Source: Planctomycetota bacterium (lineage in GTDB: Bacteria; Planctomycetota; Phycisphaerae; WQYP01). Taken from it: a DNA stretch of 23,418 nucleotides. A program made the translations under genes and the position numbers. Where the stretch lies: positions 1 to 23,418 of the forward strand of contig JAKCCC010000001.1 in assembly GCA_021838985.1 (NCBI GenBank). Reading direction: 5' to 3'. This document shows, piece after piece, positions 10,382-22,416 of this stretch. Each line of letters starts with the position of its first letter. Position 1 is the first letter of the stretch. Under the pieces are notes generated by a model that did no database searches, was not told where the DNA came from, and saw only the letters and a list, made by a program, of their open reading frames with translations.

Positions 10382-10414
10382 AAATAAGAAAAACCCGGCG
10401 ACTATTGCCGCCAG
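10382..10414 (-). terminator. Rho-independent terminator of the CrtC-like gene
   Basis: Read on the minus strand, CTGGCG (10414-10409) pairs with CGCCGG (10400-10395) around an 8-nt loop, followed by G and TTTTTCTTATTT. One pair is a T-G wobble. The stem includes the last codons and its loop the TAG stop of the CrtC-like gene. The stem is short, but the T-run is convincing. Confidence 0.6.
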
Positions 10415-11670
10415 AGAGGATCGTCGGCCGGAACACGGTAGATGCAGCGCAGGGCCAAGTCGCTGAGGATTGGCCAAGCCAGACGCCGCAGATCCAAGGT
10501 TTCCATGGTCGCCCCCGCGGCCCACCGCGGCGCGCTGCGACCGCAACGCAATTCTATGCTGCAACGGCTCAGCACCGACCAGGGAGAGGATTCCAAGACG
10601 CCCTCCCGCCGAACCAGCAGTTCAGCCTCACGGCCCGCGGCATCCGCACCCTGCAATTTCAGGAGCGCCGGATAACGCATCCAGTAGTCACCGCGGCGGC
10701 TGTGACGGATGGACCACCGGGGCTGATCCACAAATATTCTTTCGGCCCCCGGCCCAAATATGCCGATACTGCCAGACGCCGCGGCGGACCGGCGCCCTTC
10801 GGCGTGATGCCAAGTCAGCGCCCAATCTGACCCGACCGCCCGTCCGCGGCTTAAAGCCCCGGCATCCAGCGTCAGGGGCGACTCCCCGTAAAAATGATCG
10901 TGACCGCCGGCGCAGCACAAGGGCATATCCAACAATACGGTCTCGCGGAGAGAATCGAGATGTTGAATCCGACCGCTGACCTGACAGTGCGGTGCGCTGA
11001 TCACCCAGGTGGGATGGCCCCCCTGCAGGGAAGCCGGCCGCAAAGGCTGCACGTGCTGTACGCCCGTGAAGGTCGGTTGAAAGGTCAGCTCCACCAGCAG
11101 ACACTGATCCGTACGGTAATGCGGCCCAGCCAGTCCGGCAACCATCGGATACCCCCGCGCCACGAGACCGAAGCTGCCGTCCTGGCGCAGCGTGATATGA
11201 TTCGGGCCTATTGAAAATTCCGCTGATCCAGGCTCGCCCCTGGCCGCCCCCGGCGGATACAGGTTGATGGCCCGTGCGACCGGACGGTACCCCTGGAAAA
11301 AGGAAATCGCCGCACCCGGATAGAGCGCCGGCGAAACCTCCTGCCAGGCCGAACCGCTCCGTTTACGGGGCGAACGATAACCGGTCGCACTTTGGCGTAA
11401 ATACTGCGGGTGGAAATACATCCCATCAAAGATATCCACCACCACACCGCCGCCGCTGGCGTCGAACGCCTCGAAATGCCAACATTCATAGGCTCCGGCG
11501 GTAGTTTGCTGTCGCCAGCCGTCCTCTTTCCAATGCGCCGCCCGTGCGGGGGGCAGGCCGGCCAGACCGGTCGCGGACCCGGCGAATGAACCAAAGCCAG
11601 AGCGTGACCCGGCCCGTGAACCTTCTCGGACCGCACGCAAATAGGATTGCCAAGTCTCTTGCTTGATCAT
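10402..11670 (-). CDS. CrtC/AttH-like (carotenoid hydratase-like) protein
   Basis: This protein of about 422 residues resembles the lipocalin-like CrtC/AttH group, which includes carotenoid 1,2-hydratase (hydroxyneurosporene synthase). Supporting features are AYECWHFEAFD at about 60-70 (family form YEWWYFDA), VVVDIFDGMYFHPQY (a hydrophobic strand followed by P-x-Y), and GGHDHFYGESPL at 255-265, matching the G-x-HDH-x-x-G active-site motif, with a Trp-rich DWALTWHHAE after it. No carotenoid genes are in the window, so the substrate is unclear. The ATG at 11670 falls inside a promoter-like -10; if that promoter is real, translation must start lower, perhaps at the TTG at 11640. Conservation begins only near residue 46, so either start is possible. 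A terminator ends the gene. Confidence 0.65.
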   Translation of the reverse strand: MIKQETWQSYLRAVREGSRAGSRSGFGSFAGSATGLAGLPPARAAHWKEDGWRQQTTAGAYECWHFEAFDASGGGVVVDIFDGMYFHPQYLRQSATGYRSPRKRSGSAWQEVSPALYPGAAISFFQGYRPVARAINLYPPGAARGEPGSAEFSIGPNHITLRQDGSFGLVARGYPMVAGLAGPHYRTDQCLLVELTFQPTFTGVQHVQPLRPASLQGGHPTWVISAPHCQVSGRIQHLDSLRETVLLDMPLCCAGGHDHFYGESPLTLDAGALSRGRAVGSDWALTWHHAEGRRSAAASGSIGIFGPGAERIFVDQPRWSIRHSRRGDYWMRYPALLKLQGADAAGREAELLVRREGVLESSPWSVLSRCSIELRCGRSAPRWAAGATMETLDLRRLAWPILSDLALRCIYRVPADDPLWRQ

Positions 11671-11697
11671 TATCTTGATCTTGTGATCTCGTGCCAA
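11669..11697 (-). promoter_or_regulatory. Candidate sigma70 promoter at the CrtC-like gene start
   Basis: On the minus strand TTGGCA (11697-11692), a 17-bp spacer and GATAAT (11674-11669) each match consensus at five of six positions. Transcription would begin near 11662, just inside the ATG-started frame. The arrangement closely resembles the galM promoter in this window. Confidence 0.45.
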
Positions 11698-12062
11698 CGG
11701 GTCGGGCCGGATTCTTGGCAAACCCTTGGCCGCGCCACAGCGGCAAAGAAAGATGGCTTGGTGTGGAAGCGACGTCTCGCCGCTTTCGGCGTCCAGAAGC
11801 GGTCCCGGCTCACCGGAACTTCCACTATGGTTGTCGAAAAATCCGGCTACACCCGTGCCAACTGCTGTATTGTATCCGAAAGATCGTTGAACTGCCAGCC
11901 GACCCTGGCCTTGGCTTGGCCAGAGGTCTGCCCATTTTTCGGGAAGCGCGAGCCTCCGGCAATCTCCCGTCACGCGGTCTCGGCACCTGGGCTTGTAACC
12001 GACGGCAGGTTCGCTCTGGGCTGGTTCAGCCACGTTCGCAACGACCATCGGCATATGGCCGG
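11671..12062. other. Gene-free stretch between hemC and the CrtC-like gene
   Basis: These 392 bp show no recognisable protein. Frames are open on both strands, but their residue content is that of non-coding GC-rich DNA and no family motif appears. The only signal I can support is the promoter-like pair at 11669-11697. The gap suggests that the CrtC-like gene is a separate transcription unit from hemC. Confidence 0.55.
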
Positions 12063-16618: not shown

Positions 16619-17983
16619 TTACTTTCTTCCGCCTGTTACCATCCGCTCCGGGTTCATAGCCATGGTTTCCTCCTGCGCCACCGCTTCGGACCGGCGGGCG
16701 CCGCCGGCCGTCAGAATAGCCAGCACCAGCAGTATACCAGCCAATAACGCCGGATCGGCGGTTCGTCCATAGTTCGCCGCATGCGGGCCGAAAATCTTGA
16801 CGATATCGGAGGTCAATAACATCAGCACCGCGGCCGCGACCAGCGCCAAAGTCGCGCGCCACGCCGCCGCTTTTCGGACCAGAGGATCCGCCACAATCAT
16901 CGCCGTCGCCAGCAAGGTCAGGATTAGCGTCACATAGTCCGGCACCCACGCCCATTCCTCGGCCCAGAGCATAAACGCCGCGACGGCGCCGATTTCCAGG
17001 ACATAGCGTGGGCAGCGCAGGCTAGGCAGCCGTCGCCGCATCCAGAACAGACCAAGCCCGCCTATAACCACCAACACGGCTCGAATAAGCCCTTCCGCCG
17101 CAGGACGGCTTAAGGCCAGGACGTTGACAAAGTAATTCTTATGCACACCCTGGTGGTATGTGGTAAACGCCGGCACGTGGCAGATCAGGCGCAACAGAAA
17201 ACTGGGCAGCGACTCTCCTTGCGGCACTTTTACCGCCCCCTGAAAAATATACGGTAAAATCATCACCCGCAAATATTGCTGATTCCACAAAACCGCCTGC
17301 GGCCAGCCCACGGCGATGGTCAGCGGCAAATAGAGCCACAAGACAATGCCGACCGCCATCGCCGCCCCAGCGCGCCAGCGCCGCCTCCAGAGCAGATAGA
17401 TCAGAAAAATAATCGGCGTCACTTTAATGCACACCGCCAGCGCCAGGGACAGTCCGCCCAGTGCATCCCCTAAAGGGTCCTCCCTCTGCACCAACCAAAG
17501 CCCCAGCATCATCGGCGCGAGCATCAGCAAGTTCATCTGCCCCTCCTGCATATCGCCGATGACCGGCCACATCCAGGCCAGAATCGCCAGCAGCAGGGGC
17601 AGCGCGGTAATCCGCCCGCCCGCCCGGCGAATCATTCCTAGACCACAATAAAGAATCACCGCCACCAACAGCAGCTTCATCAGCACCCATACGAACTGGG
17701 CGCTCGGAAACGAGAGCAGGGAAAACGGCGATAGCAGAAGAATAGTCACCGGTGGCATGGGCCAGCGGGTGTTGTGGATCGCCATATGCTTAAAGAGCAA
17801 CTTCGGCAACAGGAGCAGCCAGCGGTTAAAGTCATTGATATCGGTAGGATGCGCGCTCGAGAGGCTGTTGAGCTGACGATCAAAGGCCTGGACCGCCAGG
17901 GTTGCCGCGATAATCACCGCTCCGGCCCAGCCCCCCAGTGCCCACCACGCGGGACCGCGAGCGGCGTTCGATTGGTCTTCCAT
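16619..17983 (-). CDS. GT87-like (DUF2029) integral membrane mannosyltransferase-type protein
   Basis: This 454-residue multi-pass protein resembles the DUF2029/GT87 group of polyprenyl-phosphate-dependent glycosyltransferases, which work on the outer face of the inner membrane. After helix 1 there is an acidic loop (HPTDINDF, 45-52) of the kind that holds the catalytic Asp. Then come DMQEGQMNLLML (144-155, family pattern GQ-x-N) and AVCIKVTPIIF (183-193, family pattern K-x-x-P). About ten to twelve hydrophobic segments are present. The ATG at 17983 has AAAGGG four bases ahead. It is transcribed away from galM. The acceptor and sugar are unknown. The family call is good, the chemistry only inferred. 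Confidence 0.82.
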   Translation of the reverse strand: MEDQSNAARGPAWWALGGWAGAVIIAATLAVQAFDRQLNSLSSAHPTDINDFNRWLLLLPKLLFKHMAIHNTRWPMPPVTILLLSPFSLLSFPSAQFVWVLMKLLLVAVILYCGLGMIRRAGGRITALPLLLAILAWMWPVIGDMQEGQMNLLMLAPMMLGLWLVQREDPLGDALGGLSLALAVCIKVTPIIFLIYLLWRRRWRAGAAMAVGIVLWLYLPLTIAVGWPQAVLWNQQYLRVMILPYIFQGAVKVPQGESLPSFLLRLICHVPAFTTYHQGVHKNYFVNVLALSRPAAEGLIRAVLVVIGGLGLFWMRRRLPSLRCPRYVLEIGAVAAFMLWAEEWAWVPDYVTLILTLLATAMIVADPLVRKAAAWRATLALVAAAVLMLLTSDIVKIFGPHAANYGRTADPALLAGILLVLAILTAGGARRSEAVAQEETMAMNPERMVTGGRK

Positions 17984-18076: not shown

Positions 18077-18191
18077 GGGTGTGGCCATATTTCGTGGCAA
18101 ACGCCAACCACCGGCCATAGCGTTAAACCTCCAACCGTCTTAACGGCGGCATTTATGCCGCGCGTCCTTGCCACAAAGTCTGGCCACACCC
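18077..18191. repeat. 115-bp structured element with 24-bp inverted arms
   Basis: The two ends are inverted copies: 18077-18100 and 18168-18191 pair at 21 of 24 positions, including a perfect outer 11 bp (GGGTGTGGCCA with TGGCCACACCC) and a perfect inner 7 bp (GTGGCAA with TTGCCAC). ACGC (18101-18104) can also pair with GCGT (18162-18165) across a 2-nt bulge. Inside are two perfect 6-bp hairpins with no gap between them: CGTTAA/TTAACG (18121-18145, 13-nt loop) and GCGGCA/TGCCGC (18146-18161, loop TTTA). This resembles a three-way junction. It lies wholly upstream of the galM promoter and is divergent from the GT87-like gene. It may be a small RNA, a MITE- or REPIN-like element, or a DNA operator. 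No flanking target duplication is evident. Confidence 0.7.
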
Positions 18192-18217: not shown

Positions 18218-18246
18218 TTGACATTTCCGAACCGCAATTTGATAAT
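18218..18246 (+). promoter_or_regulatory. Near-consensus sigma70 promoter of galM
   Basis: TTGACA (18218-18223, perfect), a 17-bp spacer and GATAAT (18241-18246, five of six) form the best promoter in the window. Transcription is expected at about 18253-18254, where the ATG of galM lies, so the mRNA should be leaderless. An earlier in-frame ATG at 18245 is inside the -10 and would not be transcribed. Confidence 0.75.
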
Positions 18247-22287: not shown

Positions 22288-22416
22288 GCCTTTTCTCCTC
22301 GGATGACCCCTTTGAGTCGCTGCCATTCGGCCGCTGTTGGCGGCGTGTCCATTGAACCTAACATCCGGCGCTGCACGCGTCAAGGATTCCGATGGGCTGC
22401 AAATTTCCGGCGTGCC

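What the first reader, a model, noticed from the sequence alone, without database searches (positions are those of the whole stretch)
18077..18191. 115-bp inverted-repeat element with a three-way-junction-like fold between GT87-like gene and galM
The arms (18077-18100 and 18168-18191) match at 21 of 24 positions, and two perfect 6-bp hairpins lie back to back inside. Such layered, gap-free pairing is unlikely by chance in about 270 bp. Its position outside the predicted galM transcript argues against a simple galM leader. It could be a MITE/REPIN-like mobile repeat, an independent small RNA, or a DNA operator.
Basis: partly seen in the sequence, partly recalled or inferred. Interest (0 to 1): 0.7.

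Follow-up and report, generated by a model that had tools for sequence, protein, structure and literature searches.

The report
Decayed miniature transposon upstream of galM
The 115-bp inverted repeat is an old, decaying copy of a small non-coding transposon that is scattered many times through this planctomycete genome and its sister species and was most likely moved by the transposase of a known insertion-sequence family, so it is a real but fairly ordinary mobile repeat and not a regulatory RNA.

Summary
In detail: the arms match at 21 of 24 positions and both strands fold better than all of 200 shuffles. The element is one copy of a dispersed non-autonomous transposon (MITE), mostly 120-129 bp, in an uncultured planctomycete. 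A pattern for its terminal inverted repeat (TIR) hits 107 times in the own genome (control 6) and 163 times in the sister species (control 18). Of 65 elements under 160 bp, 31 share 6 or more of 8 flank bases, against 0.64% of crossed pairs. One sister-species copy is absent from this window, where a single 8-bp target stands at 22402-22409. ISKra4-like insertion sequences in relatives carry the same or related ends, so their transposase is the likely mover; none was found in the own, incomplete genome. A second member lies at 11699-11854. The three-way-junction fold is peculiar to this copy: little covariation above control, and 13 orthologous pairs diverge like their flanks (10.1% against 11.5%). 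The window copy itself has no recognisable target duplication. New member of a known kind.

The parts
18077..18191 (.). MITE copy (115 bp; 122-bp subfamily, 8 bp missing relative to the other aligned copies)
   Evidence: aligned with 33 other copies in A1; ortholog L034:3525-3652 in the sister species G001
18077..18098 (+). Left terminal inverted repeat (22 bp)
   Evidence: TIR weight-matrix score 32.9; 4 hits at score 9 or more in the same 335 kb after mononucleotide shuffling, 207 unshuffled
18170..18191 (-). Right terminal inverted repeat (22 bp)
   Evidence: TIR weight-matrix score 32.8
18121..18145 (.). Internal hairpin 1 (CGTTAA/TTAACG), perfect in this copy, not in the family consensus
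18146..18161 (.). Internal hairpin 2 (GCGGCA-TTTA-TGCCGC), the core shared by the copies of the 122-bp subfamily
11691..11698 (.). 8-bp target-site duplication GTGCCAAC, left copy, of the second member
11699..11854 (.). Second MITE in the window (156 bp, different interior, same kind of terminal repeats)
   Evidence: Right TIR score 24.0, left end below the score threshold of 9; sequence; sister-species ortholog L116:601-747 with the same duplication in reverse complement
11855..11862 (.). 8-bp target-site duplication GTGCCAAC, right copy, of the second member
22402..22409 (.). Empty site (single copy of AATTTCCG) where the sister species G001 carries a 123-bp member (L034:7790-7912)
   Evidence: an 8-bp overlap of the flanks gives 48 of 60 matching bases, the other overlaps tried (0-7, 9-12) 33-39
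18218..18246 (+). Promoter-like match upstream of galM, outside the element
   Evidence: pattern match only
16619..17983 (-). GT87-domain protein gene flanking the element
   Evidence: PF09594
18254..19291 (+). galM, aldose 1-epimerase, flanking the element

Best explanation
18077-18191 is an old copy of a non-autonomous miniature transposon (MITE). At 115 bp it cannot encode a transposase. Its two 22-bp terminal inverted repeats are nearly the same sequence as the ends of ISKra4-like insertion sequences in relatives. The transposase of such an insertion sequence, a Mutator-like DDE enzyme, is inferred to have recognised these ends in trans and inserted the element into new sites with an 8-bp staggered cut, which created the 8-bp duplications seen around other copies. 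This copy entered the GT87-galM intergenic region before the two held species of the genus split, and has since lost 8 bp and any visible target duplication. Shown by sequence: copy number, shared ends, 8-bp duplications in the family, an empty orthologous site for a sister copy, matching ends on ISKra4-like insertion sequences, and drift at about the rate of the flanks. Inferred: that the ISKra4-type transposase is the one that moved it, and that it has no function now.
For: Copies: 10 further places in the own genome at E 1.1e-7 or better. In 41 genomes, own included, 8 have a match at E 0.001 or better; near-full-length ones are in G000 and G001, those in the other six are shorter pieces, and for several genomes only 20 candidates were scored. 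TIR pattern: 107 hits against control 6 in G000, 163 against 18 in G001. Spacing: 52 of 89 inward TIR pairs in the fetched loci are 120-129 bp long (some pairs are alternatives at one place). Target duplications: in 37 aligned copies, flank identity 59.1% at k=8 against 26.4% for crossed flanks; k=9 gives 41.7%, the other lengths from 3 to 12 give 18-35%. 31 of 65 elements under 160 bp reach 6 of 8, crossed pairs 0.64% (the 4 listed elements of 160 bp or more had been admitted only if they reached 6 of 8 and are left out). Empty site in the window for a syntenic sister copy. Partner: in G001 an ORF that matches the C-terminal part of the ISKra4 transposase model (57.8 bits) ends one base before a TIR (L182). 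In 15 of 16 fetched regions of G002 and G015 the contig ends 101-172 bp, mostly 125-127 bp, inside an element bounded by this TIR, and these ends carry a transposase start or stop. Insertion sequences of 1566 and 1589 bp with related ends and perfect 8-bp duplications in G019 and G024 (ISKra4 match). Published p-MULT elements, ISKra4 among them, have 18-39-bp inverted repeats and 8- or 9-bp duplications (PMC3942029, section 11 read).
Against: The window copy shows no target duplication (1 of 8), nor does its ortholog (2 of 8). No ISKra4-like transposase joined to this TIR was found in the own genome (one weak hit, E 2.1e-7, no TIR in its locus), which is 69.5% complete. All ISKra4 matches stay below that model's curated cut-off (0 of 28 genomes over it, best 204.3 of 205 bits; the model also rings in 2 of 14 control genomes). 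The insertion sequences with perfect duplications have a related, not identical, TIR, and a third one, in G016, has no duplication (1 of 8). Other tries for an empty site failed: no clean site; the ortholog carried the element. Orthologous pairs in the duplication count are not independent.
Confidence: 0.94

Rival explanations
1. A structured small RNA (or leader RNA) gene whose three-way-junction fold is functional and kept by selection.
For: Strong folding energies, an internal hairpin shared by the aligned copies, and two of five pairing measures of the + structure modestly above column shuffles (cells changed on both sides 31 against 20.6, 10 of 500 shuffles as high; covariation score 0.161 against 0.149, 11 of 500).
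Against: The tool warns that relatedness alone can give such excess. Pairs changed on both sides: 13 against 10.3 for the + structure (65 of 500) and 13 against 13.8 for the - structure (365 of 500). RNAalifold covariation term -0.31, 1 of 16 pairs with a double change. The orthologous copy at this locus folds at z -1.82 with a different structure. No Rfam match at gathering threshold. Element and flank diverge alike in 13 ortholog pairs. Dozens of dispersed copies, many with target duplications.
Confidence: 0.02
2. A protein-binding operator (inverted repeat) that regulates galM and the divergent GT87 gene.
For: It lies between divergent genes and just upstream of a promoter-like site. [quoted passage not shown]
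Against: The same kind of element stands at many other places: 79 candidate elements collected here, 36 in G000 and 43 in G001, some being alternative pairings at one place. Between orthologs, TIR positions change at 8.9%, core positions at 8.7%, the rest at 11.9%, flanks at 11.5%. At this locus the ortholog has 13 substitutions, 4 of them in TIR positions. Binding was not tested.
Confidence: 0.03
3. A REPIN (paired REP elements moved by a RAYT transposase).
For: A dispersed palindromic repeat.
Against: REPs are 20-40-bp palindromes, two large groups being GTAG- or CGTC-tagged (PMC3733652, title and start of abstract in a search listing). These elements are about 122 bp, share ends with an ISKra4-like insertion sequence and leave 8-bp duplications. 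RAYT genes were not searched for.
Confidence: 0.01

Closest known systems
ISKra4 family insertion sequences (p-MULT 4: ISAzba1, ISMich2, ISKra4 groups; NCBIfam NF033572)
   Same: Same kind of ends: inverted repeats within the published 18-39 bp and 8-bp duplications (PMC3942029). A closely similar TIR stands next to ISKra4-like transposase genes in relatives.
   Different: The window element has no transposase gene, is 115 bp, and by eye its interior does not resemble the subterminal sequence of the insertion sequences beyond the TIR. The transposases score below the NF033572 cut-off.
Bacterial MITEs in general
   Same: Short, non-coding, terminal inverted repeats, dispersed copies, target duplications, and a candidate partner insertion sequence with matching ends.
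   Different: The partner is ISKra4-like. In the held papers only one holds all of ISKra4, MITE and miniature inverted-repeat, and the passages seen do not describe an ISKra4 MITE. Several different interiors share one TIR here.
REP/REPIN elements with RAYT transposases
   Same: Palindromic and dispersed.
   Different: Length, ends and target duplications differ; the associated transposase here is ISKra4-like (RAYT not searched).

Membership tests
MITE | Short and without a transposase gene | tested here: met
   115 bp, too short for a transposase; 52 of 89 TIR pairs are 120-129 bp
MITE | Terminal inverted repeats | tested here: met
   21 of 24 positions; TIR scores 32.9 and 32.8
MITE | Many dispersed copies in the genome | tested here: met
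MITE | Target-site duplication of fixed length, in the family | tested here: met
   8 bp: 31 of 65 elements under 160 bp with 6 or more of 8, crossed pairs 0.64%
MITE | Target-site duplication at the window copy itself | tested here: not met
   1 of 8 here, 2 of 8 at the ortholog; read as decay of an old insertion. The second window member has 8 of 8.
MITE | Insertion polymorphism with a clean empty site | tested here: met
   For a sister copy, at window 22402-22409; not for the window copy, which both species share. Five other tries gave none.
MITE mobilised by ISKra4 | Autonomous element with the same ends in the same or a related genome | tested here: met
   Same genus: C-terminal fragment next to a TIR (L182). 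Same family: collapsed copies and full-length relatives with a related TIR. Not found in the own 69.5%-complete genome.
MITE mobilised by ISKra4 | Transposition in trans by that transposase | not testable with these tools
   Needs an assay
ISKra4 family transposase (NF033572) | Score over the curated cut-off | tested here: not met
   0 of 28 genomes over 205 bits, best 204.3; L170 145.5 bits, L182 fragment 57.8 bits. The name is therefore ISKra4-like by best match.
Structured RNA | Compensatory base changes clearly above control | tested here: not met
   two of five measures of the + structure modestly above shuffles
REPIN/RAYT | 20-40-bp REP units with GTAG or CGTC tags and a RAYT gene | tested here: inconclusive
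   Length and ends do not fit; RAYT genes not searched

The most novel reading that the evidence does not exclude
One ISKra4-type (Mutator-like) transposase cross-mobilises a whole set of MITEs with unrelated interiors in this planctomycete family, and the internal hairpin core (CGGCGGCATTTATGCCG), found in copies of several genera although orthologous copies do not preserve it, is a cis-acting part needed for transposition and not for the host.
Probability: 0.15. Interest if true: 0.4.

Novelty: new member of a known kind. Interest (0 to 1): 0.25.

Why it matters
It explains the repeat without invoking a new RNA or operator and gives the family a likely mover. It also shows how strong folding of a single copy can mislead: four of the five copies folded here on the + strand of their locus reference reach z -4.8 to -6.7 without a common shape. 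The set of MITE classes with one shared TIR, with insertion differences between two species, is a usable marker of transposon activity in an uncultured planctomycete lineage.

Tried and rejected
Structured RNA: Rfam at gathering threshold (0 matches), RNAalifold, pair counts for the window's + and - strand structures, folds of the ortholog and three other copies. Three of the four copies fold well but each differently, as expected from shared terminal repeats; rejected.

Host constraint on the core: I expected the strongly shared core to be under selection. In 13 ortholog pairs core positions changed at 8.7% (34 of 390), TIR at 8.9% (51 of 572), the rest at 11.9% (73 of 613), and elements as a whole at 10.1% against 11.5% for 60-bp flanks; rejected as a host function. 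The first copies were gathered by similarity to the window copy, which favours the core; the later set was gathered by TIR alone.

Empty sites: the L031 site gave a gap larger than the element; the L035 and L111 queries returned no adjoining flanks, mostly repeats; the orthologs of L021 and of the second window element carry the element. The clean empty site came from comparing the flanks of 78 elements with all held loci: 4 candidate sites, of which only the L034/window one was examined base by base. Of the other three, two had a flank overlap of 13 and one a gap of 4; I did not look at them further.

Distribution: TIR at 1 mismatch or fewer in 20 of 28 family genomes and 65 of 248 class genomes. 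Most of the genomes outside the family have one hit and may be chance; those with more than a few are G044 (14), G197 (7) and G054 (6), not followed up.

Rows dropped: copies L046, L010 and L011 were left out of alignment A1 (34 of 37 kept). In the 69-row list, elements of 160 bp or more were included only with 6 or more of 8 matching, so I report 31 of 65 without them; L104 is in that list twice with two right ends; orthologous pairs in it are not independent. The shuffles kept single-base composition only, and the loci scanned had been fetched because they had hits.

Full report
What was claimed and what is there. The arms at 18077-18100 and 18168-18191 match at 21 of 24 positions, and two perfect 6-bp hairpins lie between them. 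Both strands fold better than all of 200 shuffles. The flanking genes are a GT87-domain protein and galM.

It is one of many copies. A search of the window's own assembly (2.92 Mb, 579 contigs, 69.5% complete) found 58 matches at E 10 or better, the window itself included; 10 others have E 1.1e-7 or better, and many of the weak ones are single arms. Among 41 genomes, the own one included, 8 had a match at E 0.001 or better. The near-full-length matches are in G000 and in the one other genome of the same genus, G001; the rest are pieces, and in several genomes only 20 candidates were scored. A pattern for the terminal repeat, up to 2 mismatches, hit 107 times in G000 (control, the pattern read backwards: 6) and 163 times in G001 (control 18). 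A scan of named genomes with the internal core returned 22 stretches: 21 from Planctomycetota MAGs (isolates DBS1-1.bin91, SKS5.bin63, LSA5.bin36, FK5.bin10) and one from Acinetobacter beijerinckii that I did not follow up. Equal contig lengths suggest that DBS1-1.bin91 is G001.

Anatomy of the family. Thirty-seven copies were aligned and 34 kept in alignment A1. The usual length is about 123 bp, with ends near GGGTGTGGCC(A/G)GATTTCTTGGC and GCCACAAAATCTGGCCACACCC and a shared core around CTTAGCGGCGGCATTTATGCCG. The window copy lacks 8 bp next to the core. A weight matrix of the 22-bp end scanned over 335 kb of fetched loci gave 207 hits, against 4 after mononucleotide shuffling; these loci had been fetched because of hits. 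Of 89 inward pairs 52 are 120-129 bp long, and there are further classes around 147 bp and 210-500 bp with different interiors but the same ends.

Signs of transposition. Flanks of the 37 copies agree at 59.1% of positions when compared as 8-mers next to the element, against 26.4% for crossed flanks; 9-mers give 41.7%, other lengths 18-35%. Of 65 elements shorter than 160 bp, 31 have 6 or more of 8 matching flank bases; the crossed control is 0.64%. The element at L034:7790-7912 in G001 is missing at the syntenic place in the window. Its two flanks meet at window 22409 and share a single AATTTCCG (22402-22409); an 8-bp overlap gives 48 of 60 matching bases and the other overlaps tried, 0 to 12, give 33-39. 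The window also holds a second member, 11699-11854, of a different interior class, with a perfect 8-bp duplication GTGCCAAC that its ortholog shares. The window copy at 18077 has no visible duplication (1 of 8), and its sister-species ortholog has none either (2 of 8). Five other tries for an empty site gave none: no clean site; ortholog occupied.

The likely mover. In 15 of 16 fetched regions of two genomes of the same family, G002 and G015, the contig ends 101-172 bp (mostly 125-127 bp) beyond the same terminal repeat, as happens when an assembly breaks in a long repeat. Some of these ends read into a transposase start (MDKDVLKKRLMASCEAHL...) 71 bp from the edge, others into a transposase end (...KWDADHAAAMMTLLAMRESNQHQQWWAMRARAA); four of each were translated. 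In G001 an ORF with nearly the same ending matches the ISKra4 family (57.8 bits) and stops one base before a terminal repeat. ISKra4-family matches occur in 20 of 28 genomes of the family, none over the curated cut-off, the best at 204.3 of 205 bits; 2 of 14 control genomes also ring. Insertion sequences of 1566 and 1589 bp in G019 and G024 have related ends and perfect 8-bp duplications; a third, in G016, has none. The published description of this transposase group gives 18-39-bp inverted repeats and 8- or 9-bp duplications, and names Planctomycetes among the hosts of p-MULT 4 (PMC3942029, section 11 read; other passages). In the own genome only a weak match without a nearby repeat was seen, so the mover is inferred from relatives.

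Not an RNA, not an operator. RNAalifold on A1 gives 16 pairs, namely outer repeat pairs, the core hairpin and two further pairs, with a covariation term of -0.31. Counting pairs of the window's own two structures gives 13 pairs changed on both sides in each, against 10.3 and 13.8 in shuffles; two of five measures for the + structure are modestly above shuffles (10 and 11 of 500 as high), which relatedness can cause. The ortholog at this same locus folds at z -1.82 and differently, while three other copies fold at z -4.8 to -6.7 in yet other shapes. Thirteen orthologous pairs differ at 160 of 1581 element positions (10.1%) and at 178 of 1552 positions of the 60-bp flanks (11.5%); by zone, TIR 8.9%, core 8.7%, rest 11.9%. 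I read this as drift, not maintenance. At the window locus alone the element changed somewhat more than its flanks (11.3% against 6.7%).

Known or new. This appears to be an undescribed family of MITEs with ISKra4-like ends. I searched the held papers for ISKra4 with MITE terms, Planctomycetes with MITE terms and ISKra4 with inverted-repeat, duplication and Planctomycetes terms; no title or start of abstract in the parts listed describes it, but most of those papers were seen only as listings. The one paper holding all three ISKra4/MITE terms does not describe such elements in the passages seen (PMC9208149), and a 2024 review of prokaryotic MITEs has 0 occurrences of ISKra4 in its main text (PMC10969869, word search). 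ISfinder was not available. The kind of element is well known, so interest is modest.

Noticed in passing
window 11699-11854: A second MITE with the same kind of ends and a different interior, flanked by a perfect 8-bp duplication. A 550-aa ORF listed across it (10402-12054, -) had no Pfam match in either of the two parts tested.
   Followed up: yes
window 22402-22409: Empty orthologous site of a sister-species MITE insertion.
   Followed up: yes
L035:3473-3737 and L021:1869-1942: Two further repeated stretches outside the elements, with many copies in G000 and G001 respectively.
   Followed up: no
L099:612-895 and L101:1283-1600: Several left ends with one right end at one orthologous site, suggesting repeated insertion into or next to earlier copies.
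   Followed up: no
L028:95-241, L031:1501-1647, L030:1581-1726, L026:460-606: A 147-bp class with an internal palindrome (GTGGAAGCGGCGTCTCGCCGC... in L028) and the same TIR.
   Followed up: partly
G044, G197, G054 (same class, other families): Multiple TIR matches (14, 7 and 6 hits) outside the family, possibly related insertion sequences or MITEs.
   Followed up: no
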